From: Pseudonocardia oroxyli
Lineage (GTDB): Bacteria > Actinomycetota > Actinomycetes > Mycobacteriales > Pseudonocardiaceae
Assembly (NCBI RefSeq): GCF_900102195.1
Contig: NZ_FNBE01000010.1
Location: 1 to 64,000, forward strand
DNA length: 64,000 nt
Reading direction: 5' to 3'
In this document: positions 4,404 to 22,947 of the stretch, piece by piece
Position numbering within the stretch: the first letter of the stretch is position 1
Layout: the number at the start of each line of letters is the position of its first letter
Made by a program: the position numbers and the translations under genes
Notes under the pieces: generated by a model
What the model was told of the DNA's origin: nothing
The model's input: the letters and a program-made list of their open reading frames with translations, nothing else
The model's database searches: none

Positions 4404-5942
4404 ATGAGTGCCCGACGACGGGGAGCGGCGGCGGTGATCGGCGTGCTCGCGCTCGCCGGCTGCGCAGGCAGCCCCCCGCCCGCCGCCCCCGCGTCCACGT
4501 CCGCGTCCACGTCCACGTCCACGACCGCCGCACCCGCCGCCTTCAGCCCCGCGGCCTGCCCCAACCCGATCTACCCGGGGGTGACCCAGCTCGACCTCGG
4601 CCCCGGCGTCGAGTGCGGCTACCTGACGGTCCCGCAGGATCGCACGCGGCCGGACGGCCGGACCCTCCGTCTCGCCGTCGCCCGCGCCGCGGCCACCGCC
4701 CCGAACCCGAAGGCCGACCCCCTCGTCTACCTCGCGGGCGGGCCGGGCGGCAGCGGGTTGATCAGCGCGGCGCCCCGGATCGCCGCGGGCTGGAACCGCG
4801 ACCGGGACGTGATCTTCCTCGACCAGCGGGGAACCTGGAAGTCCGATCCGCTGCTCTCCTGCCCGGAGATCGACGCCTTCCAGGCCGAGCTCGTCGGCCT
4901 GGTCACCACCGATCCCGCGACGGCCGCGCGCAGCGCCGCGGCGACCGCGGCCTGCCGGGAGCGCCTGACGACCGCCGGCTGGGACCTCGCCGCCTTTGAC
5001 ACGGCCGAGAACGCCGCGGACCTCGCCGACCTGCGGACCGCGCTCGGCATCGACGAGTGGGACCTCTACGGCGTCTCCTACGGCACGGACCTGGCCCTGC
5101 AGACCTTGCGCGACCATCCCGACGGGATCCGCGCCGTCGTCCTCGACTCGGTCGTGCCGCCGCAGCTCAACACCCCGGAGAGCTTCTGGCCGTCCGCCCG
5201 CAGCGGGCTCGGCGCCCTGTTCGCCGCCTGCGCCGCCCAACCGGCCTGCCGGACGACGTACCCGACCCTGCGCGAGGACTTCTTCCGGCTGGCCACCGAC
5301 CTGACCACCACCCCGCGCACGGTGACCGTGGAGGGAACCACCGTCGTCGTCGACGGGTACAAGCTGGTCAACCTCGCGGTCACGGCCGGCCTCGTCCCCG
5401 GCACGATCGGCGGGATACCCGCGCTGGTCGAGAACCTGGCCCGCGGCGACGGCCGACTCGCCGCGACCGCCCTGCTCGCCGGGCTGCCGCCCTCCGGCGT
5501 CACCGCCTACGGCCTGGCGCTCGGGGTGTTCTGCGCCGAGTCCCCGACCACCCCGGACGCCCTGCTGGCGAGCGGCCGGGCGGCGCTGCCCGAACTGCCG
5601 GACGCCCTGCTCACGCACCCTCCGCAGATCCCCTTCCTGACCGGCGACTGCGCCGCGTGGGACGTGCCCGCGGCACCCGGCGCCCTCCGCGAACCGGTGC
5701 GGAGCGACCGGCCGGTCCTCGTCCTCGACGGCGCGCTCGACGCGATCACCGCTCCGGCCAACGGCGACGCGGTCGCCGCGACCCTCCCGCACAGCACCCG
5801 GGCCCGGTTCGCCGACGCGGCCCACGACGTCCTGCTCTGGTCGCCGGAGTGCTCGCTGCGGATCATGCAGGACTTCCTCGACGATCCGGCCGCGGTGGAC
5901 ACGAGCTGTGCCGCCGCCACCGCGCCCGCCCCGTTCACCTGA
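4404..5942 (+). CDS. Secreted alpha/beta-hydrolase lipoprotein, tripeptidyl-aminopeptidase-like (S33)
   Basis: A 512-residue exported hydrolase. The N-terminus is a lipoprotein signal (VLALAGC, lipid-anchored Cys20), followed by a Ser/Thr/Pro-rich linker. The hydrolase domain shows the oxyanion loop GGPGGSG, FLDQRGTW, the nucleophile elbow GVSYGT (Ser225), a late Asp in VLDGALDAIT and the His in FADAAHDVLLW. The C-terminal TAP-like domain contains a Cys-rich end (ECS...TSC). This layout matches the actinobacterial tripeptidyl aminopeptidase group, which trims extracellular peptides. It is transcribed divergently from the ribose operon and has no evident partner. Confidence 0.85.
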   Translation: MSARRRGAAAVIGVLALAGCAGSPPPAAPASTSASTSTSTTAAPAAFSPAACPNPIYPGVTQLDLGPGVECGYLTVPQDRTRPDGRTLRLAVARAAATAPNPKADPLVYLAGGPGGSGLISAAPRIAAGWNRDRDVIFLDQRGTWKSDPLLSCPEIDAFQAELVGLVTTDPATAARSAAATAACRERLTTAGWDLAAFDTAENAADLADLRTALGIDEWDLYGVSYGTDLALQTLRDHPDGIRAVVLDSVVPPQLNTPESFWPSARSGLGALFAACAAQPACRTTYPTLREDFFRLATDLTTTPRTVTVEGTTVVVDGYKLVNLAVTAGLVPGTIGGIPALVENLARGDGRLAATALLAGLPPSGVTAYGLALGVFCAESPTTPDALLASGRAALPELPDALLTHPPQIPFLTGDCAAWDVPAAPGALREPVRSDRPVLVLDGALDAITAPANGDAVAATLPHSTRARFADAAHDVLLWSPECSLRIMQDFLDDPAAVDTSCAAATAPAPFT

Positions 5943-5948
5943 GCCCCC

Positions 5949-5966
5949 ATCGGCAGAACGACCGAT
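5949..5966. promoter_or_regulatory. Palindromic stress-regulon motif, copy 1
   Basis: ATCGG-CAGAACGA-CCGAT, a perfect 5-bp inverted repeat with an 8-bp spacer, followed by TGCCG. It ends 64 bases before the ATG of the debranching-type enzyme. Four other copies occur in the window, all in 8.6-20.1 kb. Confidence 0.6.
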
Positions 5967-6030
5967 TGCCGCCGCCGCCCACCGGAAGGACCGTGAACCC
6001 TCGGCCCAGGGACGACGGAGAGCGGTGACG

Positions 6031-8196
6031 ATGGGCGCCTCGCTGCCCGAGAAGTGGAACCCGGAGAACGAACCGGCACGCGTCGGGGCGAACGCGGTGA
6101 CCCTCGTGGAGGGGGCGTCGTTCTGCATCTGCACGTTCGGCGGGGACATCGGCGGCAACGGGCCGTGCGGCGTCTTCTTCCGGGACACCCGCATCCTGTC
6201 CCGCTGGGAGCTGCGGGTGGACGGCGAGGTCCCCGACCCGCTGGCGGCGATGAACCCCGATCCCTACCGCGCCATCTTCCTCGGCAGGCTGTCCCGCCGG
6301 TTCGGGCGGACCGACACCAACGTCCTGGTGCAGCGGGAGCGGCGGATCGGCAACGGGCTCCGGGAGGACCTGGTGCTGCGCAACCCGGGGGCCGAACCGA
6401 CGACGTGCAGCGTGACGCTCTCCGTCGAGGCGGACTTCGCGGACCTCTTCGAGGTCAAGGAGGGGCGCGTGCACCCGCGCGGCGAGCCGGGCGCACAGGC
6501 CCAGGACGACCGCCTCTACCTGGGCCTGCACTGGCGGGGGACCCACCGCGGCACGGTGGTGGAGGCGCCCGCGGGCACGGTCGCCGTGTCCTCGGGCGGC
6601 GCGGGGGCGGCAACCATCTCGTACGACGCCTACGTCCCCGCGGGCGGTCGGTGGTCGATCTCGCTGCTGGTGCGTCCCGTGCTGGACGGTGAGGCCGTCG
6701 AGGCGTCCTTCCCCCTGAACCAGCCGGAACGGGAGTCCCTGCCCGCCCGGCGCCTGCAGCACTGGCGGGAGACCACCCCGCTCGCCACGACCGGGCACGA
6801 CAGCCTGCAGCGGACGTTGCGCCGCAGCCAGGAGGACGTCGGGGCGTTGCGCATCTTCGACCCGGAGGACCCCACGCTCGCCGCGGTCGCCGCGGGCGCC
6901 CCCTGGTTCATGGCGCTGTTCGGCCGGGACTCGCTGCTCACCGCCTACATGGCGCTGCCGGTCGACCGGAGCCTGGCGCTGGGCACGATGCGGACCCTCG
7001 CCCGCCACCAGGGTCGCGCGACCGACCCGGTGACCGAGGAGGAGCCCGGTCGGATCCTGCACGAGGTGCGGCTGGGGGTGGACTCGGGCCTGTCCCTGGG
7101 CGGCGGGCGCATCTACTACGGCACGGTGGACGCCACGCCGCTGTTCGTGGTGCTGCTCGCGGAGTTCGCCCGCTGGGGCGGCGAGCGGAGGTCCGTGGAG
7201 GAGCTGCTGCCGCATGCGGACCGGGCGCTGGCGTGGATGACCGACCACGGCGACCGCGACGGGGACGGCTTCCTCGAGTACCGCCGGGCGACCGACCGCG
7301 GGCTGCAGAACCAGGGCTGGAAGGACTCCTGGGACGGGATCACCTTCGCCGACGGCCGCCCGGCCGAGGCACCGATCGCGTTGTGCGAGGTCCAGGGCTA
7401 CGCCTACGACGCCTTCCGCGCCCGCGCCGAGCTCGCCCGCCGGCTCGACGACGACGCGGGTGCCCGACACTGGTCCGCGCGGGCGGCGGCCCTCAAAACG
7501 GCCTTCAACGAGCGGTTCTGGCTCCCCGAGCGAGGCTGGTACGCCCTCGCGCTGGACCGGGACAAGAACGCGGTCGATGCCTGCGCGTCGAACATGGGCC
7601 ACTGCCTGTGGAGCGGCATCGTGGACGACGACAAGGCACCCCTGGTCGCCGAGCACCTGCTCTCCCCCGAGATGTTCACGGGCTGGGGGGTGCGCACGCT
7701 CAGCAGCGCCATGGGCGCCTACGACCCGGTCAGCTACCACAACGGCTCGGTCTGGCCCCACGACAACGCCCTCGTCGTCGCCGGGCTGATGCGCTACGGC
7801 TTCGTGGCACAGGCGCAGCGGGTCGCAGAGGGGATCCTCGACGCGGCGGAGCACTTCGGGGGCAGGCTCCCGGAGCTGTTCTGCGGCTTCGACCGCGACG
7901 AGTTCCCCGAGCCGGTGCCCTACCCCACCTCCTGCTCACCGCAGGCCTGGGCCTCGGCCACCCCGGTCCAGCTCATCCGGACGCTGCTGCGCTTCGACCC
8001 GGAGCTCCCCCGGGAGCGGCTGTGGGTCGCCCCCGTGCTGCCCCGGGCCTTCGCCCCGCTGCGGGTCGAGGGGGTCGGCGTCGGGGAGGGCCGGCTCAGC
8101 GTGGAGGTGACCGACGCCCAGACGCGGGTGGAGGGCGTGCCCTCCGGCGTCGACCTGCGCTGCGCGCCCCGCCCGGCGGAGGACCCGTCCGGCTGA
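6031..8196 (+). CDS. Glycogen-debranching-type glycoside hydrolase (GDE_N_bis plus six-hairpin domain)
   Basis: A 721-residue protein of the amylo-alpha-1,6-glucosidase-like family that processes alpha-glucans or trehalose-like sugars. The N-terminal beta domain (about 10-230) has GGNGPCGVFFRDTR; the C-terminal (alpha/alpha)6 domain has LFGRDSLLTAYMAL, NQGWKDSWDG and YHNGSVWPHDN, conserved in GH15/GH63-like enzymes. I chose ATG 6031 because GGAG lies about ten bases upstream; GTG 6025 is possible. A copy of the stress palindrome lies upstream, and the ANTAR gene converges with it after 16 bases. A role in reserve or compatible-solute sugar turnover under stress is inferred. Confidence 0.85.
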   Translation: MGASLPEKWNPENEPARVGANAVTLVEGASFCICTFGGDIGGNGPCGVFFRDTRILSRWELRVDGEVPDPLAAMNPDPYRAIFLGRLSRRFGRTDTNVLVQRERRIGNGLREDLVLRNPGAEPTTCSVTLSVEADFADLFEVKEGRVHPRGEPGAQAQDDRLYLGLHWRGTHRGTVVEAPAGTVAVSSGGAGAATISYDAYVPAGGRWSISLLVRPVLDGEAVEASFPLNQPERESLPARRLQHWRETTPLATTGHDSLQRTLRRSQEDVGALRIFDPEDPTLAAVAAGAPWFMALFGRDSLLTAYMALPVDRSLALGTMRTLARHQGRATDPVTEEEPGRILHEVRLGVDSGLSLGGGRIYYGTVDATPLFVVLLAEFARWGGERRSVEELLPHADRALAWMTDHGDRDGDGFLEYRRATDRGLQNQGWKDSWDGITFADGRPAEAPIALCEVQGYAYDAFRARAELARRLDDDAGARHWSARAAALKTAFNERFWLPERGWYALALDRDKNAVDACASNMGHCLWSGIVDDDKAPLVAEHLLSPEMFTGWGVRTLSSAMGAYDPVSYHNGSVWPHDNALVVAGLMRYGFVAQAQRVAEGILDAAEHFGGRLPELFCGFDRDEFPEPVPYPTSCSPQAWASATPVQLIRTLLRFDPELPRERLWVAPVLPRAFAPLRVEGVGVGEGRLSVEVTDAQTRVEGVPSGVDLRCAPRPAEDPSG

Positions 8197-8212
8197 CGGG
8201 ACTCCGTCGCGC

Positions 8213-8539
8213 TCAGCGTCGCCCGCGCGGCCCAGGGTCCGGCGGGTCGTCGAGCGTTCCCGTGAGGATCAGCGTCTCGGCCAGCTCCCGCACCTTCCTG
8301 TTGCGCCGCTGGCTCTCGGCGACGAGCGCGGTGATGGCCTGCTCGTCGGTGAGCCGGCGGCTGCACATCAGGATGCCGACCGCGACGCCGATCCGTCGGT
8401 TGCTGAGCAACGCGCGCTCCAGGTTGGCCACCCGCTCCTCCGCCGCCCGGAGCCGGGCCTGCAGCTCGTCGAGCTCGGGGTCGGCGTCGGAGCGCGGTGC
8501 CGGGACGACGGAGGCCTGCGCGGACGAGCTGGTGATCAT
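8213..8539 (-). CDS. Stand-alone ANTAR-domain RNA-binding antiterminator
   Basis: A 108-residue protein. Residues about 22-50 form a heptad-like coiled coil (ELQARLRAAEERVANLERAL) and 50-100 an ANTAR three-helix domain (RRIGVAVGILMCSRRL, then ALVAESQRRNRKVRELAETL). ANTAR proteins bind paired hexanucleotide stem-loops in RNA and prevent termination. The usual GAF, PAS or receiver domain is absent, so activity is probably set by abundance or by partner binding; this is inference. The ATG at 8539 has GGAGGA upstream. The promoter region, shared with the divergent DUF1345 gene, contains two copies of the stress palindrome. Confidence 0.85.
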   Translation of the reverse strand: MITSSSAQASVVPAPRSDADPELDELQARLRAAEERVANLERALLSNRRIGVAVGILMCSRRLTDEQAITALVAESQRRNRKVRELAETLILTGTLDDPPDPGPRGRR

Positions 8540-8625
8540 CGAAGTCCCGGTCCTCCCCCGCACGCCGCCGCGTGCGCACCGTGTGGCGCCGACCTCCAGC
8601 GTGGCGGCCCGTTCCGGCGCCCGAA

Positions 8626-8643
8626 ATCGGCAGTGCGACCTAT
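8626..8643. promoter_or_regulatory. Palindromic stress-regulon motif, copy 2
   Basis: ATCGG-CAGTGCGA-CCTAT, one mismatch from the perfect palindrome. It lies in the 217-bp region between the divergent ANTAR and DUF1345 genes, exactly 40 bp centre to centre from copy 3. Confidence 0.55.
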
Positions 8644-8665
8644 CCGCCGCACGACGCGGGCCGGG

Positions 8666-8683
8666 ATGGGCAACTCTGCCGAT
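8666..8683. promoter_or_regulatory. Palindromic stress-regulon motif, copy 3 (opposite orientation)
   Basis: ATGGG-CAACTCTG-CCGAT; on the minus strand this reads ATCGGCAGAGTTGCCCAT, matching the common ATCGGCAG half. Together with copy 2 it puts one motif in each orientation between divergent genes. Confidence 0.55.
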
Positions 8684-8756
8684 ACTGCTGCGCCGGCGGG
8701 CGGAGTCGGATGGAGCGGCGGGACGGGGTGCGACGAGGTGCGGACGAGGAGGCGGC

Positions 8757-9395
8757 GTGGACGCTGGCGACCAGGACGCCCGGATCATCTCCTGGCGTCG
8801 CGTGGCGGTGTCGTTCGCCGCGGGTACCGCCGCCGCGGTCGCCGTGGTCCTGCTCGGTGCGGCCGAGCTGACGGTGCTCGTCGGCTGGGCCGTCGCGGTG
8901 ACGATCCTGCTGGTGTGGGTCTGGCGCATCAGCTGGCCGCAGGACGAGCGGGGCACCAAACGCCTGGCGGAGGAGGAGGGTCGGTCCCACGTCATGGACA
9001 CGGTGGTGCTCGTCGCGGCCGTGGCCAGCCTGGCCGCGGTGCTCGCGGGCGTGGTCACCGCAGGCCGGCAGGACGCGGTGGCGGTCGCCGGCGTCGTCCT
9101 CGCCGTCGTCGACGCGATCCTGTCCTGGGCCCTGGTGAACACGGTCTTCGCCCTCAAGTACGCGCGGCTCTACTTCGAGGGGAACGACGGCGGCATCGAG
9201 TTCCCCCGGAACGACCACCCGGTGTACGCGGACTTCGCCTACCTCGCGTTCACGGTCGGCATGTCCTTCGCCGTGTCCGACACCGGTCTGGAGACCACCC
9301 GGATCCGCACGGTGGGGTTGGGGCACGCGCTGCTGTCCTACCTGTTCGGGAGCGTCCTGATCGCGGTGGCCGTCAGCCTGCTGACCAACGTGTGA
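8757..9395 (+). CDS. DUF1345 family integral membrane protein
   Basis: A 212-residue protein with about five to six hydrophobic segments, such as VAVVLLGAAELTVLVGWAV, VVLVAAVASLAAVLAGVV and LLSYLFGSVLIAVAVSLL. The conserved middle (SWALVNTVFALKYARLYF, then DFAYLAFTVGMSF) is characteristic of DUF1345. Function is unknown in the family. GTG 8757 is chosen for GAGGAGG four bases upstream. It is divergent from the ANTAR gene and precedes the chaperone operon by 141 bases; membership in the same stress regulon is inferred from the shared upstream motif. Confidence 0.82.
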   Translation: MDAGDQDARIISWRRVAVSFAAGTAAAVAVVLLGAAELTVLVGWAVAVTILLVWVWRISWPQDERGTKRLAEEEGRSHVMDTVVLVAAVASLAAVLAGVVTAGRQDAVAVAGVVLAVVDAILSWALVNTVFALKYARLYFEGNDGGIEFPRNDHPVYADFAYLAFTVGMSFAVSDTGLETTRIRTVGLGHALLSYLFGSVLIAVAVSLLTNV

Positions 9396-9414
9396 GAGCG
9401 ACCCGGGCACCGAC

Positions 9415-9432
9415 ATCGGCAGGACGACCGAT
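9415..9432. promoter_or_regulatory. Palindromic stress-regulon motif, copy 4
   Basis: ATCGG-CAGGACGA-CCGAT, perfect palindrome, with the same TGCCG continuation as copy 1. It is about 105 bases upstream of the first gene of the chaperone operon. No HAIR (CTTGAGT-N7-ACTCAAG) or CIRCE element was found here. Confidence 0.6.
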
Positions 9433-9536
9433 TGCCGACGCCGGCCCGCACGGGCCAGCGTGGACGGTGTGAACGGCCGCAGTCCGACGTGGTCGCCGCA
9501 GCAGCTCTCCCGTCGACCCGTCAGGAGGAACACTCC

Positions 9537-10067
9537 ATGTCCCTGAAGGACCCGATTGGCGCGCGCGGAGGCGCCGCCGTGGATCCGTGGTCGCCCGGCA
9601 GCCCCGGTGCCTCGACCCGTTCGGCCAGGCGGACCGTCGCCTCGTACGCCGACTACGCCGACGCCGAACGTGCGGTCGACCGGCTCGCCGACCGCGACTT
9701 CCCGGTCGAGCGGGTCGCCATCGTCGGCCAGGACCTGCAGGCCGTCGAGCAGGTGACCGGGAGGATGAACCACCCCACCGCGGCCTGGCGGGGCGCGGTG
9801 AGCGGGGCCGTCCCGGGCGCGCTGCTCGGCTGGCTCTTCGGGATCTTCGGCTGGGCCGACCCGTTGGTCGCCGCGATCCTGCTCGCCGTCTACGGACTGC
9901 TCCTCGGCGCGGTGATCGGCGCGGTCATCGGGATGATCGTCTACGCGTTCCAGCGGGGTCGCCGGGACTTCGCGTCCGTGGCCTACACCCGCCCCCAGCG
10001 GTTCGAGCTGGTCGTCGACGACGAGGTGGCCGACCGGGCCGCCCGGCTGCTCGCAGAGGAGGACTGA
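9537..10067 (+). CDS. General stress protein 17M-like membrane protein
   Basis: A 176-residue protein heading the chaperone operon. The N-terminal half ([20 protein letters not shown], then VAIVGQDL) matches the GSP17M/YflT ferredoxin-like domain. The second half has two glycine-rich hydrophobic segments ([20 protein letters not shown] and [18 protein letters not shown]) and a short basic tail region. Its molecular role is unknown; homologues are stress-induced. ATG 9537 follows a strong AGGAGG; longer in-frame starts lack one. DnaK starts two bases after its stop. Confidence 0.83.
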
Positions 10068-10068
10068 G

Positions 10069-11964
10069 ATGGCACGCGCGGTGGGTATCGACCTCGGGAC
10101 GACGAACTCGGTCATCGCCGCCTGGGAGGGCGGCGAGGCCTCGGTCGTCCCCAACGCCGAGGGGGCTCGGACGACGCCGTCGGTGGTGGCGTTCACCGAG
10201 AGCGGCGAACGCCTGGTCGGCCAGCTCGCCCGCAGGCAGGCGATCCTCAACTCCACGGGGACGATCTACTCGGTCAAGCGGTTCATCGGCCGCCGGTTCG
10301 AGGAGGTCGAGGAGGAGGCCGGTCAGGTCACCTACGACGTCGTCCCGGACGAGAACGGGAACGCCCGGGTCAAGGTGCGGGACAAGCTGTACGCGCCGGA
10401 GGAGATCTCCGCGCAGATCCTGCGCAAGCTCGCCGACGACGCCGGACGGCACCTCGGCGAGCGGGTCACCGAGGCGGTGATCACCGTCCCCGCCTACTTC
10501 AACGACGCGCAGCGCACCGCCACCCGCGACGCGGGGCGGATCGCGGGCCTCGAGGTCCTGCGGATCATCAACGAGCCGACCGCCGCGGCGCTGGCCTACG
10601 GCATGGACAAGGGCGGGCACGAGACGGTGCTGGTGTTCGACCTCGGCGGCGGGACGTTCGACGTCAGCGTCCTCGACGTCGGCGACGGTGTGGTCGAGGT
10701 GCGGGCCACCGCCGGTGACACCCACCTCGGCGGTGACGACTTCGACCGCCGGATCGTCGACCACCTCGCCGACGGATTCCAGCAGGAGAACGGCATCGAC
10801 CTGCGGAAGGACCCGCAGGCGCTGCAGCGGCTCTACGAGGCCGCCGAGAAGGCGAAGGTCGAGCTCAGCTCCGTCAGCCAGACCCAGGTCAGCCTGCCGT
10901 TCGTCACCGCGGACGCCACCGGGCCGAAGCACCTGACGACGACGCTGATGCGCTCGACGTTCGAGCAGCTCACGGAGGATCTCGTCGAGCGGACGATGGG
11001 GCCGGTGCGCCAGGCCATGGCGGACGCCAAGGTCGGGGCGGACGACGTCGACGAGGTCATCCTGGTCGGCGGCTCCACCCGGATCCCGGCGGTGCAGGCG
11101 CTGGTGCGCAGGCTGACCGGCGGCAAGGACCCGAACATGACCGTCAACCCCGACGAGGTCGTGGCGGTCGGCGCCGCGATCCAGGCCGGGGTGCTCAAGG
11201 GCGAGGTGTCCGACGTCCTGCTGCTCGACGTCACCCCGCTGTCCCTGGGGGTGGAGACCCAGGGCGGGCTGATGACCACGATCGTCGAGCGGAACTCGAC
11301 GATCCCGGTCCGGCGCAGCGAGGTCTTCTCGACCGCGGTGGACGATCAGCCCGCGGTGGACGTCGTGGTGCTCCAGGGCGAGCGGGAGCGCGCGGCGGAC
11401 AACCGGGTGCTGGGCCGGTTCCAGCTCACCGGCATCCGGCCCGCTCCGCGCGGGGAGCCGCAGGTCGAGGTCGTCTTCGACATCGACGCCAACGGCATCC
11501 TCAACGTGACGGCGCGCGACAAGGACACCGGCGCCGAGCAGGGCATCACGATCTCCGAGAGCGCCAACCTCGACACCGCCGAGGTGGAGCGGATGGTCAC
11601 CGAGGCCGAGCGGAACCGGGCGTCGGACCAGCAGCTGCGGCAGGAGGTGGACGCGCGCAACCAGCTCGACAGCGCCGCCTACCAGGTGCAGCGCCGGCTC
11701 GACGAGCTGGGCGACGCGGCCCCGCCGCACGAGCGCGCCCGGGCCGAGCTGCTGGTGACCGAGGCCCGGCAGGCCGTCGCCGACCAGGTGCCGCTCGACC
11801 GCGCCCGCGAGCTGACCGGCGAGCTGCAGCAGGTGCTGGCCGGGCTCCAGGCGGCCTCGGGCGGCTCGGCGGGCTCGAACGGCTCGGCCGGGGGCGGGGC
11901 GACCGATGACGGGGCGACCGTGGACGACGACGACATCGTCGACGCCGAGTTCGACCGGAGGTGA
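10069..11964 (+). CDS. dnaK: Hsp70 chaperone DnaK
   Basis: An ATP-driven folding chaperone of 631 residues, full length. The ATPase domain begins [10 protein letters not shown] and shows [11 protein letters not shown] and the phosphate loop [10 protein letters not shown]. The substrate domain includes [13 protein letters not shown], and the protein ends in the acidic [10 protein letters not shown] tail typical of DnaK. It works with the GrpE and DnaJ encoded next. The operon lacks a visible HspR/HAIR control, so it may be an additional dnaK copy separate from the housekeeping locus; a genome check would settle this. Confidence 0.97.
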
Positions 11965-11973
11965 CCTGCGGCG

Positions 11974-12540
11974 ATGCGTGAGCCCGGACCGAACCCGCCG
12001 TCCGCCCCGCCGGAGGACGCACCGGACGCGGAGGCCGCCGAGACCCGATCGCCGCCGGAGGGACGTGCGGAGGGAGCGCCGCAGCCGGACGGAGCCACCC
12101 GGCGGGCGCTCGAGGCCGCCGAGGACCGTTGGCGGCGGGCCGCGGCGGACCTGGACAACCTGCGCAAGCGCTACGCGCGAGAGGTCGCCCGCGAGCGCGA
12201 GAACGAGCGCGGCCTGGTCACCTCGGCCTTCCTCCCGGTGCTCGACACCCTCGACCGGGCGCTCGAGCACGCCGCGGCGAACCCCGACGCCCTGGTCGAG
12301 GGCATCCGCACCCTGCGTGAACAGGCCCTCGCCGTCGTCGCGGGGCTCGGGTACGGACGCGAGGACGAGCCCGGGGTGCCGTTCGACCCGGCGCGGCACG
12401 AGGTGGTCGGGGTGGTCGACGCCGACGGGTCCGGGGCCCCGCCCGGTGCGGTGGCCGCCGTGGTCCGCCCCGGCTACGGCGCCCCCGGGCGCCAGCTCCG
12501 ACCGGCCGCCGTCACCGTGGCGCAGCGGTCGGAGGGCTGA
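11974..12540 (+). CDS. grpE: Nucleotide exchange factor GrpE
   Basis: A 188-residue DnaK co-chaperone. The disordered, acidic first 45 residues are followed by the long helix (ALEAAEDRWRRAAADLDNLR, then KRYAREVARE), LPVLDTLDRALEH, and the C-terminal beta domain with VPFDPARHEVVG and VRPGYG. These are the standard GrpE landmarks. It starts nine bases after dnaK, and dnaJ follows three bases after its stop. Confidence 0.94.
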   Translation: MREPGPNPPSAPPEDAPDAEAAETRSPPEGRAEGAPQPDGATRRALEAAEDRWRRAAADLDNLRKRYAREVARERENERGLVTSAFLPVLDTLDRALEHAAANPDALVEGIRTLREQALAVVAGLGYGREDEPGVPFDPARHEVVGVVDADGSGAPPGAVAAVVRPGYGAPGRQLRPAAVTVAQRSEG

Positions 12541-12543
12541 GCG

Positions 12544-13536
12544 GTGGCCCGCGACTTCTACGACGTCCTGGGGGTGTCCCGGGACGCCGGTGCCGACGAG
12601 CTGCAGCAGGCGTTCCGGCGGCTGGCGCGGCAGAACCACCCGGACGTCACCAAGGACCCGGGGGCGGAGGAGCGGTTCAAGGAGATCAACGAGGCGTACT
12701 CCGTGCTGTCGGACCCGGAGCTGCGCAAGCGCTACGACCGGTTCGGGGAGGACTTCCGGCGGGTCCCCGACGACTGGGAGGAGCGCGTCGGCGCCGGGGC
12801 GGGCGGCCGGGGCGGGCGCCGGGCGACCTGGACCACGGGGGGCACCGACGGCGACGGGGGGTTCGGTGGGGGATTCGAGGGCTTCGACGGTGTCGAGGGC
12901 TTCGACGGGATCGACCTGGAGGACCTCCTCGGCGGCATGTTCGGCGGCCGAGGTCGTGGGACGGGCGCGGGCCGCACCGCGGGCGCGGACCAGGAGGCCC
13001 AGCTCCCGCTGACCGTGGAGGAGGCCTACCGCGGCGGGCGCAAGGAGATCACCCTCAACGGACCGGAGGGACCGCGCACCTACACGGTCACCATCCCGCC
13101 CGGCGTCACCGACGGCAGGCGGATCAGGCTGGCCGGGGAGGGCGGGCAGGGGCTCGGCGAGGGCCCGGCGGGGGACCTCTACCTGGTGGTGCGGCTGCGA
13201 CCGCACCCGCGCTTCCGCGTGGAGGGCCGCACCATCCGCGTCGAGCTGCGGCTCGCGCCGTGGGAGGCGGCCCTCGGCGCGACCGTCCCGGTCGCCACCC
13301 CCGGGGGCGAGACCACGGTGACCGTGCCGCCCGGCTCGTCGTCTGGCCGCCGTCTGCGCCTGCGCGGGCAGGGCATGCCGAACCCTCGCGGGCAACCGGG
13401 CGACCTGTTCGCCGAGATCAGGATCATGGTGCCGACCCGGCTCGACGACCGCGAACGCGAGCTGTACGCCCAGCTCGCCGCGGCGTCGACGTTCGATCCG
13501 CGCCGCACGACCGACGACGCGAAGGGCCGCCGATGA
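12544..13536 (+). CDS. DnaJ-family co-chaperone of the CbpA type
   Basis: A 330-residue Hsp40. The J domain (2-70) has the HPD triad in QNHPDVTKD and ends [11 protein letters not shown] Gly/Phe-rich segment (about 105-140) follows, then two C-terminal beta domains with [16 protein letters not shown] and [13 protein letters not shown]. The CxxCxGxG zinc finger is absent, so it is CbpA/DnaJ2-like. The GTG at 12544 follows grpE by three bases. Its stop overlaps the ATG of the CbpM-like gene (ATGA), matching the CbpA-CbpM pairing in other bacteria. Confidence 0.93.
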
Positions 13537-13901
13537 ACTCGCAGACCCGCTACGCGCTGGTCCGGGCCCGGGGACCGGCCCTGCTCGACGAGGCGGAGCT
13601 CGCCCGGCGGTGCGGCCTGCACCCCGAGCTGGTGCGCCGGTTCTGGGCGTTGGGGCTGATCCCGGCCGCGCGGCACGTCGACGGCTCCCCGTGGTTCAGC
13701 CCGACCCAGGTGCCGGCCGTCGCCCGGTTGCAGCGGCTGCGGGCCGCCCTGCCGCTGAACTACGCCGCCCTCGGACTCGTGTGCGACCTCCTCGACCGGA
13801 TCGCCGACCTCGAGACCGCGCTGCGCGTCCGCGGGCGCACCGAACCGGTGCGCCGACCCCCCACCCCCCAGCCGACCGACGACCGATCGGAGCGGAACTG
13901 A
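13533..13901 (+). CDS. CbpM-like/MerR-type HTH chaperone modulator
   Basis: A 122-residue protein with a MerR_2-type winged [23 protein letters not shown], then [12 protein letters not shown], and helix [17 protein letters not shown]. CbpM proteins bind and inhibit the J domain of CbpA, whereas the related HspR represses chaperone operons. The overlap with the J-protein gene favours the CbpM role, but HspR-like DNA binding cannot be excluded. The C-terminal 25 residues are proline-rich and probably disordered. ClpB starts five bases later. Confidence 0.75.
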
Positions 13902-13905
13902 AGCG

Positions 13906-16533
13906 ATGGACCCGAACCGACTGACCCAGAAGTCCCAGCAGGCCCTGTCCGAGGCACAGGACCTGGCCACCCGCGCAGGTCACACCGAGGTCGACGGCGA
14001 GCACCTGCTGGCCGCGCTGGTCGAGCAGCCGGACGGGTTGGTGCCCCGGCTGCTCGGCGAGATGGACGTCGACGTCCAGGCGGTGCGCGCCGACCTGGAG
14101 GCCGAGCTCGGCCGCAAGCCCCGCACGACCGGGCCGGGTGCCCAGCCGGGCCAGGTCGCGGTCACCCGCCGGCTGGCGGCGCTGCTCGACGCCGCCGACC
14201 GGGAGGCGCGGCGGATGAAGGACGAGTACGTGTCGGTCGAGCACCTGTTCGTGGCGCTCGCGGACGAGGGGTCCGCAGGCGGTGCGGGCCGGGTGCTGGC
14301 CCGCCACGGCGTCACCCGCGAGGCCTTCCTCGCCGCGCTGACGCGGGTGCGGGGCAACCAGCGCGTCACCTCCGCCACGCCGGAGGGGGCGTACGAGGCG
14401 CTGACGAAGTACGGGTCGGACCTGGTGGAGGCGGCCCGCGCCGGTCGGCTCGACCCGGTGATCGGCCGCGACGCCGAGATCCGCCGGGTCGTACAGATCC
14501 TGTCCCGCAAGTCGAAGAACAACCCGGTGCTGCTCGGCGAGCCCGGGGTCGGCAAGACCGCCATCGTCGAGGGCCTGGCCCAGCGCATCGTCGACGGGGA
14601 CGTCCCCGAGGGCCTGCGCGACCGCACGATCTTCGCCCTGGACATGGGGCTGCTCGTGGCCGGGGCGAAGTACCGCGGCGAGTTCGAGGAACGGCTGCAG
14701 GCGGTGTTGTCCGAGGTCAAGGCCGCGGAGGGCCGCATCCTGCTGTTCGTCGACGAGCTGCACACCGTCGTCGGAGCGGGGGCGTCCGAGGGCTCGATGG
14801 ACGCGGGCAACATGCTCAAGCCGATGCTCGCCCGCGGTGAGCTGCACATGATCGGCGCGACGACGCTGGCCGAGTACCGGCAGAACGTCGAGAAGGACGC
14901 CGCGCTGGAGCGCCGGTTCCAGCCCGTCTTCGTCGAGGAGCCCACCGTCGAGGACTCGGTGTCCATCCTGCGCGGGCTGCGCGAGCGGTTCGAGGTCTTC
15001 CACGGCGTCCGGATCCTCGACGGGTCACTGATCGCCGCGGCGACGTTGAGCCACCGCTACCTCACCGGCCGGTTCCTGCCCGACAAGGCCATCGACCTGG
15101 TCGACGAGGCCTGCGCCCGGCTGCGCACGGAGATCGACTCCATGCCCGCCGAGCTGGACGAGATCACCCGCAAGGTGATGCGGCTGGAGATCGAGGAGGC
15201 GGCGCTCGCCCAGGAGGAGGAGGACCCGCCGTCCCGGGTGCGGCTCGACCAGCTCCGCCGCGAGTTGGCCGACCTCCGCGGCGAGGCCGACGCGATGCGT
15301 GCCCAGTGGAACGCCGAACGACAGGCGATCAAGCGGGTCCAGGACCTCCGGGCGGAGCTGGAGCAGGTCCGCCACGACATCGCCGAGGCCGAGCGCTCCT
15401 ACGACCTCAACCGCGCGGCGGAGCTGCGCTTCACGCGCCAGGCCGACCTCGAGCGCAGGCTCGAGGCCGAGCAACACCGGCTCACCGAGAAGCAGGGCGA
15501 GCACCGCCTGCTGCGCGAGGTGGTGACGGCGGAGGAGATCGCCGAGATCGTCTCGGTGTGGACCGGCATCCCGGTCTCCCGGCTGACCGAGGGCGAGCGG
15601 GAGAAGCTGCTGCGTCTGGACGAGGTGCTGCACCGGCGCGTGGTCGGGCAGGACGAGGCGGTCCAGGCGGTCGCGGACGCGATCATCCGGGCCCGGTCCG
15701 GGGTGAAGGACCCGCGCAGGCCGACGGGCTCGTTCCTCTTCCTCGGCCCGACCGGGGTCGGGAAGACCGAGCTGGCGAAGGCGCTGGCCCAGGCGTTGTT
15801 CGACTCCGAGGACAACATCGTCCGGCTCGACATGAGCGAGTACCAGGAGCGGCACACCGTGTCCCGGCTGGTCGGCGCCCCGCCCGGCTACGTCGGCTAC
15901 GAGGAGGGCGGCCAGCTCACCGAGGCGGTCCGGCGGCGTCCGTACGCCGTCGTGCTGTTCGACGAGACGGAGAAGGCGCACCCGGACGTCTTCAACACCC
16001 TGCTGCAGGTCCTCGACGACGGCAGGCTCACCGACGCGCAGGGCCGCACCGTCGACTTCCGCAACACGGTCATCATCATGACGTCCAACATCGGGTCGCA
16101 GTACCTGCTCGACGGGGTCACCGCGGACGGCAGGCTGGAGCCGAAGGCCCGTGACCTCGTGCTGGCCGAGCTGCGGGCCCACTTCCGGCCCGAGTTCCTC
16201 AACCGGGTGGACGACACCGTGCTGTTCACGCCGCTGAACGAGGGCGAGATCGAGAACATCGTCGAGCTCATGCTGTCCGACCTGCGGGTGCGGCTCGTCG
16301 AGCGCGACATCACCGTGGAGATCGACGACGCCGCCCGCCGCTTCATCGCCCGCGAGGGCTACGACCCGGTGTACGGGGCCCGTCCCCTGCGCCGGTTCAT
16401 CGCCCGGGAGGTCGAGACCCAGGTCGCCCGCGCGCTGCTGCGCGACGGGGCCATCGAGGGCTCCACCGTCCGGGTCGACGTGGGCGACGACCGGCTCGTC
16501 GTCACCCACGAGCCCGTCGGGGCGCCGGCATGA
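13906..16533 (+). CDS. clpB: ClpB disaggregase
   Basis: A hexameric AAA+ chaperone of 875 residues that rescues aggregated proteins together with DnaK. The N-domain (1-150) starts with [17 protein letters not shown]1 carries Walker A GEPGVGKT near residue 210, the coiled-coil M-domain spans about 405-530 ([14 protein letters not shown]), and NBD2 has GPTGVGKTE near residue 613, [13 protein letters not shown] and GARPLRRFI. All elements are intact. The stop overlaps the thioredoxin start (ATGA). Co-transcription with dnaK and J-protein genes is the expected functional grouping. Confidence 0.97.
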
Positions 16534-16994
16534 GCGCCGCGGCGGCGGAGAGCACGCGCACGATCCCCTGCCCGCACTGCGGGACCCGGAACCGGGTGCC
16601 CGCCTCCGCGGCCTCGGTGCCGAAGTGCGGCCACTGCCACGAGCCCCTGCCCTGGATCGCCGACGCGGGGGACGACGACTTCGCGGTCGTCGCGGAGCAG
16701 GCCCCGGTCCCGGTGCTCGTGGACCTGTGGGCGACCTGGTGCGCCCCCTGCCGGATGGTGAGCCCGGTCCTCGAACGGCTGGCCACCGACCGCGCTGGCG
16801 TGCTCAAGCTGGTCAAGGTCGACATCGACCGGTCGCCCCGGCTGGCGCAGCGGTTCGAGGTGCAGGCCGTCCCCACCCTGATGGTCCTGCGGGACGGCCG
16901 GGTGCTGGCCCGCCAGCCGGGTGCCGCGCCCGAGCCCGCGCTGCGGAGCTGGCTGGACGAGGCGCTGCAGTCGAGAGGAACCGAGAACCCATGA
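16530..16994 (+). CDS. trxC: Thioredoxin 2 with N-terminal zinc ribbon
   Basis: A 154-residue dithiol reductase. The N-terminal zinc ribbon has Cys14, Cys17, Cys33 and Cys36 (CPHC, CGHC), the hallmark of thioredoxin 2. The Trx fold contains the active site WCAPC (Cys71, Cys74) and the cis-Pro loop [10 protein letters not shown]. Trx2 proteins are linked to oxidative stress and zinc-sensitive redox control. The gene overlaps clpB before it and the UBP zinc finger gene after it. The reductase-like fusion two genes later is a candidate partner. Confidence 0.93.
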
Positions 16995-17263
16995 CCCTTC
17001 CGCTGGGCATCGACCCCCACCTGGCCTACGTCCGCGCGGACGTCGAACCCCGCACGCCGCAGGGGTGCGAGGAGTGCCTGCGCACCGGATCCCCCTGGGT
17101 CCACCTGCGGCTCTGCCTGACCTGCGGGCACGTCGGCTGCTGCGACCAGTCCCCGGGCCGCCACGCCCGCAGGCACGCCGGCCTGGTCGGCCACCCGATC
17201 ATCCGGTCGTTCGAGCCGGGTGAGGACTGGCGCTGGTGCTTCGTCGACGGGGCACCGGTGTGA
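16991..17263 (+). CDS. UBP-type zinc finger protein
   Basis: A 90-residue protein that is almost entirely a ZnF-UBP domain. Ligand candidates are the CEEC pair, CLTCGHVGCC and the histidines in RHARRHAGLVGH. In eukaryotes this fold binds the ubiquitin C-terminus. In actinobacteria, which lack canonical ubiquitin, its ligand is unknown, although it recurs beside CNB-thioredoxin-reductase genes. It overlaps its neighbours by four bases on both sides (ATGA and GTGA), so stoichiometric co-expression is likely. Confidence 0.85.
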   Translation: MTLPLGIDPHLAYVRADVEPRTPQGCEECLRTGSPWVHLRLCLTCGHVGCCDQSPGRHARRHAGLVGHPIIRSFEPGEDWRWCFVDGAPV

Positions 17264-18942
17264 CCACCCGGGAGCCCGCCGACGTGCCGCCCGGGGAGAC
17301 GCCGGACGTCTCCGGGGCCTTCCCCCGCCTCGAGGAGACGCGCCTGCGCGAGCTCGAGGAGTGGGGGGAGCGTCGGCCCACGACGCGCGGGGAGGTGCTC
17401 ATCACCGAGGGCGAGCCGGAGGACACGTTCTTCGTGCTGCTCTCCGGCCGGGTCGCCGTCGTCGAGGCGCTGGGGACGCCCGACGAGCGGGTGGTGCGGG
17501 TGCACGGGCCCGGCCGCTTCCTCGGCGAGCTCGGGGTCCTCACCGGGCAGCCCGCCTTCCTGAGCGATGTCGTCGTCGACCCGGGTGAGGTCCTGGCGGT
17601 GCCCGCCGCCAGGCTGCGCAGCCTGGCGGCGCGCGACTCCGCCTTCGGCGACCTCGTGCTGCGGGCCTACCTCGTCCGCCGTTGGCTGACCCTCGGCGAG
17701 GGCGTCGGGTTCCGGATCATCGGCTCCCGCTACTCGGCCGCCACCCGGAAGCTGCGCGAGTTCGCCGCCCGCAACCGGCTGCCCCACCGGTTCCTGGACC
17801 TGGAGACCGACCCCACCGCCGAGCAGCTGCTGCGGTCGCTGGGGCTCGGTCCCGCCGACACCCCGATCGTGCTCTACCGGGGCACGTTGCTGCGCAACCC
17901 GTCGACCGCCGAGCTCGCGCCGACGTTCGGGCTGCGTGACCTCGGCCACGGCGGCGAGATCTGTGATCTCGTGGTCGTGGGCGCCGGTCCGGCCGGACTC
18001 GCGGCGGCCGTCTACGGCGCCTCGGAGGGCCTGGACACCACCCTGCTCGACGGCGTCGCGGCGGGCGGGCAGGCGGCGCGGACGTCCTGCATCGAGAACT
18101 ACCTCGGCTTCCCCTCCGGGATCTCCGGGGGCGAGCTGGCCGAACGCGCCGTGCTGCAGGCAGAGAAGTTCGGGGTGCGGCGCTCCGTCCCGTCGGAGGT
18201 GGTGGGGTTGGCGGAGCGCGACGGGCACCACGTCCTGCGCTTCGCCGACGGCGACGAGCTGGTCACCCGCACGGTGATCGTCGCGTCCGGCGTGCGCGTC
18301 CGCAGGCTGCCGGTCCCCGGCCTGGACCGGTTCGAGGACACCTGCGTCTACTACGCGGCCACCCCGCTGGAGGCCCAGCAGTGCGTCGGGGATCCCGTGG
18401 TGGTCGTCGGTGGGGGCAACTCGGCCGGTCAGGCCGCGATCTTCCTGTCCGGCCACGCCGCCGAGGTGCACCTGGTGGTCCTCGAACACACGCTCGGCGA
18501 GAACATGTCGCGCTACCTCGCCGACCGCATCGCCCAGGACCCGCGGGTCGAGGTGCACCTGCACACCGCCGTGGAGGAGCTGGCGGGTGCGGACGGCCGC
18601 CTCGAGGCCGTCGGGGTGCGGGACACGGTGACGGGGGCGCAGCAGCGGCTGCCCGCGCGCGACCTGATGGTGTTCATCGGGGGCGAGCCCAGCACGTCCT
18701 GGCTGCCGGACTCGGTGGCGCTGGACTCCGGCGGCTACGTGCTGACCGGGCCCGGTGCGCGACGGCCCGGGCGAACGGGAGCGCCCGGGGACGCCGAGCC
18801 GCTGCTGCTCGAGACCAGCCTGCCCGGGGTCTTCGCGGCGGGCGACGTGCGCAGCGGGTCGGTGAAGCGGGTCGCGTCCGCCGCGGGCGAGGGCGCGATG
18901 GCGGTCCGGATGGTGCACGAGCACCTCGCCGCCCTCCGCTGA
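17260..18942 (+). CDS. Cyclic-nucleotide-binding / thioredoxin-like / thioredoxin-reductase fusion
   Basis: A 560-residue three-part protein. Residues about 25-140 are a CNB domain (GEVLITEGEPEDTFFVLLSG, LGELGVLTGQP). Residues 150-225 resemble a thioredoxin/glutaredoxin fold without active cysteines (LREFAARNRLPHRFLD). Residues 230-560 are a TrxR-type flavoprotein with the FAD motif VVGAGPAGLAAAVYG and the NAD(P) motif VVVGGGNSAGQAAIF, then GVFAAGDVRSG. The CxxC of true TrxR is replaced by VYYAATPLEAQQC. It may be a cAMP-gated flavin oxidoreductase; the physiological acceptor is unknown. GTG 17260 overlaps the UBP stop. Confidence 0.88.
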   Translation: MTTREPADVPPGETPDVSGAFPRLEETRLRELEEWGERRPTTRGEVLITEGEPEDTFFVLLSGRVAVVEALGTPDERVVRVHGPGRFLGELGVLTGQPAFLSDVVVDPGEVLAVPAARLRSLAARDSAFGDLVLRAYLVRRWLTLGEGVGFRIIGSRYSAATRKLREFAARNRLPHRFLDLETDPTAEQLLRSLGLGPADTPIVLYRGTLLRNPSTAELAPTFGLRDLGHGGEICDLVVVGAGPAGLAAAVYGASEGLDTTLLDGVAAGGQAARTSCIENYLGFPSGISGGELAERAVLQAEKFGVRRSVPSEVVGLAERDGHHVLRFADGDELVTRTVIVASGVRVRRLPVPGLDRFEDTCVYYAATPLEAQQCVGDPVVVVGGGNSAGQAAIFLSGHAAEVHLVVLEHTLGENMSRYLADRIAQDPRVEVHLHTAVEELAGADGRLEAVGVRDTVTGAQQRLPARDLMVFIGGEPSTSWLPDSVALDSGGYVLTGPGARRPGRTGAPGDAEPLLLETSLPGVFAAGDVRSGSVKRVASAAGEGAMAVRMVHEHLAALR

Positions 18943-18952
18943 GCCCGGGGGA

Positions 18953-20020
18953 TCAGGGCGCGGGGACCGGCGGCGCGCCGGCCCTGCGGGGGTCCGGGGT
19001 CGGACCGGGCAGGAGGTCCTCGTAGAGCCGGACGTGCTGGGCGACCATCCGCTCGGTGCTGAACCGGTGGGCGGCGGCCGCCCGGCAGGCGGTGCGGTCG
19101 AGCAGCGCGGCGTCCAGGAGCGCCGCGGCCAGCGGGAGGGCGCCCGAGCGCAGGAACCCGGTGACCCCGTCGTCCACGATCTCGGGGGCGGACCCGGCCG
19201 GGGTGGCGACGACGGGGGTGCCGGTGGCCAGCGCCTCGATCATCACCAGACCGAACGGCTCCGCCCACTGCATGGGGTTGACGAGGGCGAACGAGTCCCC
19301 GACGAGCTCGAGCTTCTCGCTGTGGCCGAGCTCGCCGACGTACTCGACGTCCGCGCACAGCAGCGGCTTGACCTGCGCGTCGAAGTACTCGCGCTCCTCC
19401 GGTTCCCGCAGCTTGGCGGCCATGCGCAGCGGGACGCCCGCGGCCCGGGCCGCCAGCGCGGCCTCGCGCGGTCCCTTCTCCGGGGACATCCGTCCCAGGA
19501 AGCTCGCGTACCCGCCCTGCCCGTCGCCCACCGGGACCGACTCGACGTCCAGGCCGTGGTGTATCACGCCGGCGAGCGGCACCCCGTCGGCGGTGTCCGC
19601 CTGGTGCTGCGAGATCGCCACCACCGCGACCCCGCGCATCGCGCGGTAGAGCGGACCCAGGGTCGCGTCGAACGGGCCGTGGGCGGTGGTCACGACCGGC
19701 TGGCCCATCGGGGGACGCCGGTAGAGCGGACCGGCCATCGTGTGGTCGTGCACGAGGTCCACGTCGGTCATGGCGGCGTAGCTCGTGATGGCGTGGCGCA
19801 GCTCGGTCACCATGTCGGCGCACACCGGCCCCGCCCTGCCGACCTTCGCGGTCCCGCCCACCCGGGGCACCGGGCACTCGCTCTCGGCCGCGGCGGCGAG
19901 CAGCACCTCGTGACCGGCCCGGACCAGTCCGCGGGCCAGTCGGTCGATGACCGACTCGGTGCCGCCGTAGGCGAGCGGGGGAACGGGGACCCCCGGAGGG
20001 GCGATGAGACCGATGCGCAT
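18953..20020 (-). CDS. GT4-family glycosyltransferase
   Basis: A 355-residue GT-B enzyme that transfers sugar from a nucleotide donor. The N-terminus is MRIGLIAPPGVPVPPLAYGG, with TESVIDRLARGL next. The C-domain has SFLGRMSPEKG and the EX7E motif in AEPFGLVMIEALATGTPVVA, as in the GT4 group. ATG 20020 is preceded by GAGGA. It converges on the chaperone operon with ten bases between stops. The stress palindrome lies about 90 bases upstream, suggesting co-regulation. Acceptor and product are unknown; envelope glycan or trehalose/mannosyl-glycerate type products are possible. Confidence 0.85.
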   Translation of the reverse strand: MRIGLIAPPGVPVPPLAYGGTESVIDRLARGLVRAGHEVLLAAAAESECPVPRVGGTAKVGRAGPVCADMVTELRHAITSYAAMTDVDLVHDHTMAGPLYRRPPMGQPVVTTAHGPFDATLGPLYRAMRGVAVVAISQHQADTADGVPLAGVIHHGLDVESVPVGDGQGGYASFLGRMSPEKGPREAALAARAAGVPLRMAAKLREPEEREYFDAQVKPLLCADVEYVGELGHSEKLELVGDSFALVNPMQWAEPFGLVMIEALATGTPVVATPAGSAPEIVDDGVTGFLRSGALPLAAALLDAALLDRTACRAAAAHRFSTERMVAQHVRLYEDLLPGPTPDPRRAGAPPVPAP

Positions 20021-20109
20021 GGATGTGGTCCTCGGGAGCGGGCGCGAGTCCTGGCTCGCGACGGGACGGATGCCTGGTCCATGACACCGCCCGGCCGACC
20101 TCGTCGACC

Positions 20110-20127
20110 ATCGGCAGAGCGACCCAT
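20110..20127. promoter_or_regulatory. Palindromic stress-regulon motif, copy 5
   Basis: ATCGG-CAGAGCGA-CCCAT, one mismatch from the perfect palindrome. It lies between the glycosyltransferase start (20020) and the end of the FAD dehydrogenase gene (20154), so it can serve only the glycosyltransferase. Confidence 0.55.
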
Positions 20128-22931: not shown

Positions 22932-22947
22932 GTCCAACACTCGATTC
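22932..22947. promoter_or_regulatory. Candidate LysR-regulated promoter element (site B)
   Basis: GTCCAACACTCGATTC. The 11-mer GTCCAACACTC recurs at 29688-29698 upstream of the MFS operon, and GATTCAG recurs in the LysR palindrome at 30690-30715. It overlaps the end of the first LysR gene. Confidence 0.35.

What the first reader, a model, noticed from the sequence alone, without database searches (positions are those of the whole stretch)
5949..20127. Five copies of an ATCGG-N8-CCGAT palindrome mark an apparent stress regulon
Copies at 5949, 8626, 8666, 9415 and 20110 share ATCGGCAG plus an inverted CCSAT arm; two are perfect palindromes. Each lies in the 60-130 bp upstream of a stress-type gene (debranching enzyme, ANTAR, DUF1345, chaperone operon, glycosyltransferase), and I found none elsewhere in the window. 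It is not HAIR, CIRCE or the mycobacterial DosR box. This points to an unrecognised regulator, outside the window, for an integrated chaperone, redox and sugar response.
Basis: partly seen in the sequence, partly recalled or inferred. Interest (0 to 1): 0.78.

Follow-up and report, generated by a model that had tools for sequence, protein, structure and literature searches.

The report
Stress-gene activator box and its regulator
Five near-identical DNA palindromes in this actinobacterium are very likely docking sites, each a fixed distance ahead of a promoter, for one sensor-activator protein that switches on a small set of stress, sugar and detoxification genes, and a likely protein could be named by comparing many genomes.

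Summary
All five sites exist, and nothing else in the window scores above 10 on their matrix. The exact motif ATCGGCAGNNCGACCNAT occurs four times in the 6.1-Mb genome, all within this 14 kb. Sites recur ahead of orthologous genes in other Pseudonocardia and other actinobacterial lineages.

Oriented to the gene served, each window box ends 22-23 bp before a -10-like hexamer. Its centre is then near -43.5, the place of a class II activator. By this rule 8666 serves DUF1345 and 8626 serves ANTAR.

The likely regulator lies outside the window, at G000:C27:263750-264766: a one-component GAF/LuxR-type (GerE) protein divergent from an alcohol-dehydrogenase/DJ-1 operon with its own weaker box. It is in 9 of 10 boxed GDE loci against 0 of 70 unboxed. 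Nine of 9 loci picked by the protein alone have a box, against 3 of 70 controls (one of the nine repeats a GDE locus).

Against a fixed regulon, 12 of 15 YflT-DnaK operons examined lack the box, some in genomes with the regulator. Binding, signal and activation are untested. I rate it a new regulon of a known kind.

The parts
5949..5966 (+). box ATCGGCAGAACGACCGAT, centre near -43.5 of the GDE promoter
   Evidence: a box stands ahead of GDE in 10 of 10 relatives at >=67% identity
5989..5994 (+). -10-like hexamer GACCGT of GDE (inferred)
   Evidence: the only one of six own promoters without TGG at the expected place
6031..8196 (+). glycogen debranching-type enzyme (GDE_N_bis, GDE_C)
   Evidence: Pfam
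8213..8539 (-). ANTAR-only protein, 108 aa
   Evidence: Pfam
8598..8603 (-). -10-like hexamer CACGCT of ANTAR (inferred)
8626..8643 (-). box ATAGGTCGCACTGCCGAT, by spacing the ANTAR box
8666..8683 (+). box ATGGGCAACTCTGCCGAT, by spacing the DUF1345 box (box of the ADH operon in congeners)
8706..8711 (+). -10-like hexamer TCGGAT of DUF1345 (inferred)
8760..9395 (+). DUF1345 protein
   Evidence: Pfam
9415..9432 (+). box ATCGGCAGGACGACCGAT of the YflT-chaperone operon
9456..9461 (+). -10-like hexamer CAGCGT of the YflT operon (inferred)
9537..10067 (+). YflT-domain heat-induced stress protein
   Evidence: Pfam
10069..11964 (+). DnaK, one of two full-length DnaK-type proteins in this genome
11974..12540 (+). 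GrpE
12544..13536 (+). DnaJ
13906..16533 (+). ClpB (TIGR03346, over cut-off)
16530..16994 (+). thioredoxin
17236..18942 (+). thioredoxin-reductase-like protein with N-terminal cNMP-binding domain
18953..20020 (-). GT4-type glycosyltransferase
   Evidence: longer frame scanned; start at 20020 read
20081..20086 (-). -10-like hexamer TGTCAT of GT4 (inferred)

Best explanation
The boxes are the operator of a dedicated transcriptional activator. A dimer of a one-component regulator (N-terminal GAF domain, a second small alpha/beta domain, C-terminal LuxR/GerE helix-turn-helix) binds the 18-bp inverted repeat ATSGG(C/T)(A/C)G-NN-C(T/G)(G/A)CCSAT. The box sits centred near -43.5, taking the place of a -35 element, and the regulator recruits RNA polymerase to a weak -10 element 22-23 bp downstream. 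Because the box is nearly symmetric it works in either orientation. In this genome the regulator is G000:C27:263750-264766, divergent from an ADH/DJ-1 operon with its own weaker box. In the window it drives GDE, ANTAR, DUF1345, the YflT-DnaK-GrpE-DnaJ-ClpB-Trx-TrxR run, and GT4. The GAF module presumably senses a small molecule or a redox/aldehyde-type stress. Shown by computation: sites, conservation, fixed spacing, link to the regulator gene. Inferred: binding, activation, the operon extent, the signal.
For: Restriction: 4 of 4 exact genome sites lie here, reversed control 0. Conservation: 17 exact sites in 10 of 62 genomes of the genus; 14 of them, in seven genomes, lie ahead of GDE, YflT-DnaK, ADH/ANTAR or GT4. 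Box columns average 0.89-0.94 majority identity against 0.50-0.66 for flanks.

Spacing: TGG at the end of the -10 falls within one 3-base window in 33 of 46 oriented promoters and in 5 of the 6 own promoters; 0 of 5000 circular-shift controls reach the latter. In 23 promoters of own and distant genomes it is 15, with 0 of 2000 controls reaching it.

Regulator: homologues at 73-100% identity in 9 of 62 genomes of the genus (in G019 as two segments, 77% and 55%), including all seven with the stress-gene sites (Fisher 8e-6). It is found in 9 of 10 boxed GDE loci against 0 of 70 unboxed (p 4e-11; the tenth, P. kujensis, has it outside the fetched stretch). Of 9 regulator loci picked by protein alone, 9 have a box, 6 of them within 200 bp of the gene, against 3 of 70 control loci. 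One of the nine is the same contig as GDE locus L111; without it 8 of 8, p 7e-9. The GerE domain is over cut-off, and the model of an orthologue shows GAF plus HTH.
Against: No binding or expression data. The chaperone operon is boxed in 3 of 15 relatives examined, and G024, G019 and G032 have the regulator but an unboxed operon; G010 has one boxed and one unboxed copy. In one search, where I chose the genomes, 5 of 20 genomes with a regulator-like protein have no exact symmetric match and 6 of 25 without it have one. Three of the 17 exact sites in the genus lie in genomes without the close regulator, ahead of other genes. The box by the regulator in this genome is weak (ATCGGCAGGTTTGCCACT, score 15.3). 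The -10 hexamers are mostly not TANNNT, and GDE of the window lacks the TGG. 51 GerE-domain stretches exist in the genome, so another one could bind. Promoter rows were picked and oriented by hand. Some control GDE loci are cut by contig ends: 4 of 70 have under 350 bases ahead of the match and 15 of 70 are under 15 kb.
Confidence: 0.8

Rival explanations
1. The boxes are bound by a different protein, such as a DosR/OsdR-type two-component response regulator or another of the genome's GerE proteins, and the GAF-LuxR protein is only a neighbour carried along in the same gene cluster.
For: GG-N8-CC layout as in NarL-type sites (recalled); the OsdR consensus AGGGCCGATCGGCCCT shares the central GGC/GCC spacing (passages of PMC5069765). 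51 GerE stretches in the genome.
Against: In the nine loci chosen by the GAF-LuxR protein alone a box is always present, within 200 bp of that gene in six, over six other families. In G107 a box also stands at a chaperone operon on another contig. A DosR-type pattern in the window is below background.
Confidence: 0.12
2. The boxes are repressor operators: the regulator blocks these promoters until a signal arrives.
For: A palindrome over the -35 region could also occlude polymerase; no expression data exist.
Against: Near-fixed spacing to the -10 with the box in the place of the -35 fits activation better. Known NarL-family regulators of this layout mostly activate (recalled knowledge).
Confidence: 0.1
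3. The boxes act as RNA elements, for example a target of the ANTAR protein encoded at 8213-8539.
For: An ANTAR gene lies in the cluster; the arms could pair in RNA.
Against: Boxes lie upstream of the inferred -10 and would not be transcribed from it, and both orientations relative to the gene occur. Most boxed loci listed show no ANTAR match in the fetched stretch.
Confidence: 0.02
4. Chance or repeat-derived sequence without function.
For: At three mismatches the pattern is at background.
Against: Exact sites are confined to this cluster, the reversed pattern has 0 matches in 45 genomes, and boxes recur ahead of the same genes in distant families.
Confidence: 0.01

Closest known systems
DosR/DevR (Mycobacterium) and OsdR (Streptomyces coelicolor) dormancy regulons
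   Same: GerE/NarL-type DNA-binding domain, palindrome with a similar central layout, clustered stress regulon in Actinobacteria
   Different: no receiver domain found in the candidate; other box letters (ATCGGCAG half-site); no universal stress protein or nitroreductase match among the 20 window proteins scanned
LuxR-type one-component regulators (autoinducer LuxR, GAF/PAS-LuxR proteins)
   Same: ligand-type sensor domain fused to GerE HTH, about 340 aa
   Different: sensor is a GAF fold, with no Autoind_bind match; sits with chaperone, glycogen-type and dehydrogenase genes; no named family reached its NCBIfam cut-off
HspR/HAIR and HrcA/CIRCE heat-shock control
   Same: control of dnaK-grpE-dnaJ-clpB genes
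   Different: neither recalled operator pattern occurs in the window at 3 mismatches; position and sequence differ

Membership tests
LuxR/NarL (GerE) transcription factors | C-terminal GerE HTH domain | tested here: met
   PF00196 57.8 bits, cut-off 23.5; PDB matches include VraR, NarL and DevR DNA-binding domains
LuxR/NarL (GerE) transcription factors | binds an inverted repeat as dimer at target promoters | not testable with these tools
   only a statistical link of gene and box
GAF-domain sensors | GAF fold at N terminus | tested here: met
GAF-domain sensors | Pfam GAF model match | tested here: inconclusive
   no GAF hit at E<=0.01 for the own protein; GAF_2 over cut-off in the paralogue L060:14601-15800
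DosR/OsdR response regulators | N-terminal receiver domain | tested here: not met
   no receiver hit at E<=0.01; the model of the orthologue shows a GAF fold there
DosR/OsdR response regulators | DosR-type box at targets | tested here: not met
   3 matches at up to 2 mismatches against 6.85 expected, none at the five promoters (pattern recalled)
Autoinducer-binding LuxR | PF03472 domain | tested here: not met
   no hit at E<=0.01 for the own protein; a distant relative in G018 scores 21.8 against cut-off 23
HspR/HAIR | CTTGAGT-N7-ACTCAAG operator | tested here: not met
   0 matches at up to 3 mismatches in the window (pattern recalled)
HrcA/CIRCE | TTAGCACTC-N9-GAGTGCTAA operator | tested here: not met
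   0 matches at up to 3 mismatches in the window (pattern recalled)

The most novel reading that the evidence does not exclude
A portable stress regulon: the GAF-LuxR activator, its box and a set of genes (aldehyde-type dehydrogenase, DJ-1, DUF1345, GDE, GT4, in some genomes cydAB and a second chaperone set) move among actinobacterial families as a unit and recruit further operons by acquiring the box. The GAF domain senses a reactive aldehyde or redox signal directly, tuned in some genomes by adjacent paralogues that kept the GAF domain but lost a recognisable helix-turn-helix.
Probability: 0.25. Interest if true: 0.65.

Novelty: new member of a known kind. Interest (0 to 1): 0.52.

Why it matters
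If true, it gives a second dnaK-clpB chaperone set in some Actinobacteria an activator outside the HspR/HrcA schemes. It links chaperones, thioredoxin, glycogen-type enzymes and aldehyde-type dehydrogenases under one sensor, and it provides an exact box, promoter geometry and candidate protein that can be tested at once.

Tried and rejected
A spacer of three instead of the right number of bases gave background only; it was my pattern error. The one-mismatch site at C3:81179 lies inside a predicted ORF, with no gene of the stretch matching a window protein, and was rejected as a target. LacI (1566-2600) and LysR (22946-23851) of the window were considered as regulators; a LacI match appears in only one relative examined (G015), and LysR matches are partial or distant. 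The ANTAR/RNA-element idea was rejected on position and orientation.

GDE relatives at 63% identity or less (70 loci) carry no box ahead of GDE and no regulator in the fetched stretch; three have an isolated match elsewhere. Of these 70, 4 have under 350 bases ahead of the match and 15 are under 15 kb, so some absences are weak. Rows dropped before the spacing count: L106 13307 (-), L111 13394 (+) and L113 4183 as a GT4 box, 3 of 49, because the gene served was unclear. Promoter rows and orientations were picked by hand. The site matrix was built from 16 typed 18-mers, the five window sites among them, so scores of those are not independent; it used no site from the loci, though some letters recur there. 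L253, one of the nine loci, proved to be the same contig as L111; L106 and L107 are the genus genomes G024 and G020, so the tests share those loci. In the fold comparison only residues 1-174 were well covered; the second domain (about 177-262) was not searched alone.

Paper searches without a description of this box or regulon in their listings: (open PMC library only; one query failed on its wording). Seen: passages of PMC5069765 and of PMC2928746; the other papers only as search listings.
Full report
OBSERVATION. The five boxes are real and exclusive. Reading the window gives ATCGGCAGAACGACCGAT at 5949, ATCGGCAGTGCGACCTAT at 8626, ATCGGCAGAGTTGCCCAT on the minus strand at 8683-8666, ATCGGCAGGACGACCGAT at 9415 and ATCGGCAGAGCGACCCAT at 20110. 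A matrix scan of all 64 kb at score 10 or more returns these five and nothing else (they helped build the matrix). In the whole 6.1-Mb assembly the exact pattern occurs 4 times, all here, and 0 times reversed. With one mismatch there is one more, inside a predicted ORF; with three mismatches the pattern is at background. With the symmetric consensus at up to one mismatch, 5 of 8 places genome-wide are the five boxes; at up to two mismatches it is 87 places against 60 reversed. Given the first site, the chance that the other three exact sites fall within the same 14 kb is about 1e-7.

SURROUNDINGS. Pfam gives: alpha/beta hydrolase (4404-5942), glycogen debranching-type enzyme GDE (6031-8196), ANTAR-only protein (8213-8539, minus), DUF1345 (8760-9395), YflT (9537-10067), DnaK, GrpE, DnaJ, ClpB, thioredoxin, a cNMP-binding thioredoxin-reductase-like protein (to 18942) and a GT4 glycosyltransferase (minus, start read at 20020). 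The genome has a second full-length DnaK at C23:28462 and two further Hsp70-type proteins, so the window's set is an additional one.

CONSERVATION. Among 62 genomes of the genus, 17 exact sites occur in 10 genomes. Fourteen lie, in seven genomes, ahead of GDE, YflT-DnaK, ADH/ANTAR or GT4. The other three are in G007, G018 and G022. In G007 and G018 the gene is an amidase; the G022 gene was not scanned, but its start region resembles that of G018. In G018 the gene on the other side of the box is a GAF/GerE protein. In 80 GDE relatives from named genomes, the 10 loci with GDE at 67% identity or more all have a box ahead of GDE: P. oceani, P. kujensis, Geodermatophilus africanus, a Nocardioides, and MAGs named Aeromicrobium, Marmoricola (two), Modestobacter, Mycobacterium and Frankiales. 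None of the other 70 has one. Ahead of GDE, ADH and GT4 the box columns average 0.89, 0.92 and 0.94 majority identity, flanks 0.50-0.66. In congeners such as G015 and G020 an ADH and a DJ-1 gene sit between the box pair and DUF1345. In the window genome such an ADH/DJ-1 pair lies at C27, and DUF1345 directly follows the ADH-type promoter.

PROMOTER GEOMETRY. I oriented 49 boxes to the gene served, dropped 3 with unclear targets, and read downstream. A TGG that begins with the last T of the -10-like hexamer falls within one 3-base window (0-based offsets 26-28 after the box) in 33 of 46. Five of the six own promoters show it, a level reached by 0 of 5000 circular-shift controls; in 23 promoters of own and distant genomes it is 15, reached by 0 of 2000. 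With that T at -7, the box centre is at -43.5 or -44.5, overlapping -35: the class II activator position (established knowledge). Most GDE rows and the YflT rows carry the strong half ATCGGCAG on the far side; ADH, GT4, ANTAR and amidase rows carry it on the near side, so orientation is free. This also reassigns the pair at 8626/8666: 8666 stands at the right distance for DUF1345 (plus strand), 8626 for ANTAR (minus strand). The hexamers are mostly not TANNNT, and the sigma factor is unknown.

THE REGULATOR. Near the GT4 gene of P. kujensis lies a 339-aa protein with a C-terminal GerE domain. Its homologues at 73-100% identity occur in 9 of 62 genomes of the genus (in G019 as two segments, 77% and 55%); the next are at about 50%. 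The nine include all seven genomes with the stress-gene sites. Exact box against regulator across the genus: 7 of 9 against 3 of 53, Fisher 8e-6. Among the 80 GDE loci the regulator (E <= 1e-80) is present in 9 of 10 boxed loci and 0 of 70 unboxed, Fisher 4e-11; the tenth has it beyond the fetched stretch. Some of the 70 are cut short by contig ends. In a class-wide sample 9 of 394 genomes, own included, have it at E <= 1e-60, so its spread is patchy. I fetched the nine regulator loci of the eight other genomes (six other families) and scanned them with the matrix, which used no site from them: 9 of 9 have a box, within 200 bp of the gene in 6, against 3 of 70 regulator-less GDE loci and 2 of 45 Markov controls. 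One of the nine (L253) turned out to be the same contig as GDE locus L111; without it 8 of 8, p 7e-9. In four of these genomes 7 of 10 symmetric-pattern matches lie within 10 kb of the regulator. In G107 a box also stands at the head of a DUF308-DnaK-GrpE-DnaJ-ClpB-Trx run on a different contig. In the window's own genome the regulator is at C27:263750-264766, 81% identical to the P. kujensis protein, divergent from ADH with a weaker box between.

LIMITS AND RESULTS AGAINST. The chaperone link is not general. Of 22 YflT loci examined (one per genome), 15 have DnaK directly behind YflT and only 3 of these have a box (G000, G020, G015); a fourth boxed copy, in G010, was seen. G024, G019 and G032 have the regulator yet an unboxed operon. 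In the 45 genomes, which I chose, 15 of 20 with a regulator-like protein and 6 of 25 without have a symmetric match (Fisher 1e-3); the reversed control is 0 in all 45. No binding or expression was tested.

FUNCTION. From gene content (inference): the ADH (P. kujensis protein) scores best with the glutathione-independent formaldehyde dehydrogenase model but at half its cut-off (313.6 against 637 bits), and the own DJ-1 protein passes the PfpI deglycase/protease subfamily cut-off. P. kujensis has cydAB in the cluster with two weaker boxes near its start. Together with thioredoxin, its reductase and chaperones this suggests a reactive-aldehyde or redox/respiratory stress. I hold that part at low confidence.

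COMPARISON. It works like a DosR- or NarL-type class II activator, but it is not a member of the DosR/OsdR family: receiver domain and box were tested and not met. It belongs to the broad GerE class by domain. No paper on this box or regulon came up in the searches listed under Tried and rejected.

Noticed in passing
L060:14601-15800 (+); L105:13279-14316 (-): GAF paralogues of the regulator (about 41% and 38% identical) near the boxed genes without a GerE match in Pfam; possible co-sensors or anti-activators.
   Followed up: partly
G000:C4:133989-134411 (L216): A shortened second regulator copy in the window's genome: residues 194-334 are matched at 77%, the N-terminal part is not matched.
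   Followed up: partly
L067:8419-10979; L065:8439-10016: Amidase genes with the same box in G018 and G007; in G018 a distant GAF/GerE protein is divergent from it. L069 (G022) looks alike but its gene was not scanned.
   Followed up: partly
G003:C99:47449, G009:C220:52083, G056:C1:4726366: Genomes with about 50% identical regulator paralogues have near-perfect palindromes (for example ATCGGCAGATCTGCCGAT) between about 50 bp and 1 kb from the paralogue gene, hinting at a wider family with the same half-site.
   Followed up: partly
17236-18942: Thioredoxin-reductase-like protein fused to an N-terminal cyclic-nucleotide-binding domain.
   Followed up: no
8644-8760: DUF1345 here directly follows the two-box promoter that in some congeners drives ADH-DJ-1; an ADH/DJ-1 pair lies on another contig (C27) beside the regulator.
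   Followed up: partly
L252:7612-8604: In G154 a box overlaps the called start of a 330-aa protein with no Pfam match at E<=0.01, a possible new target.
   Followed up: no
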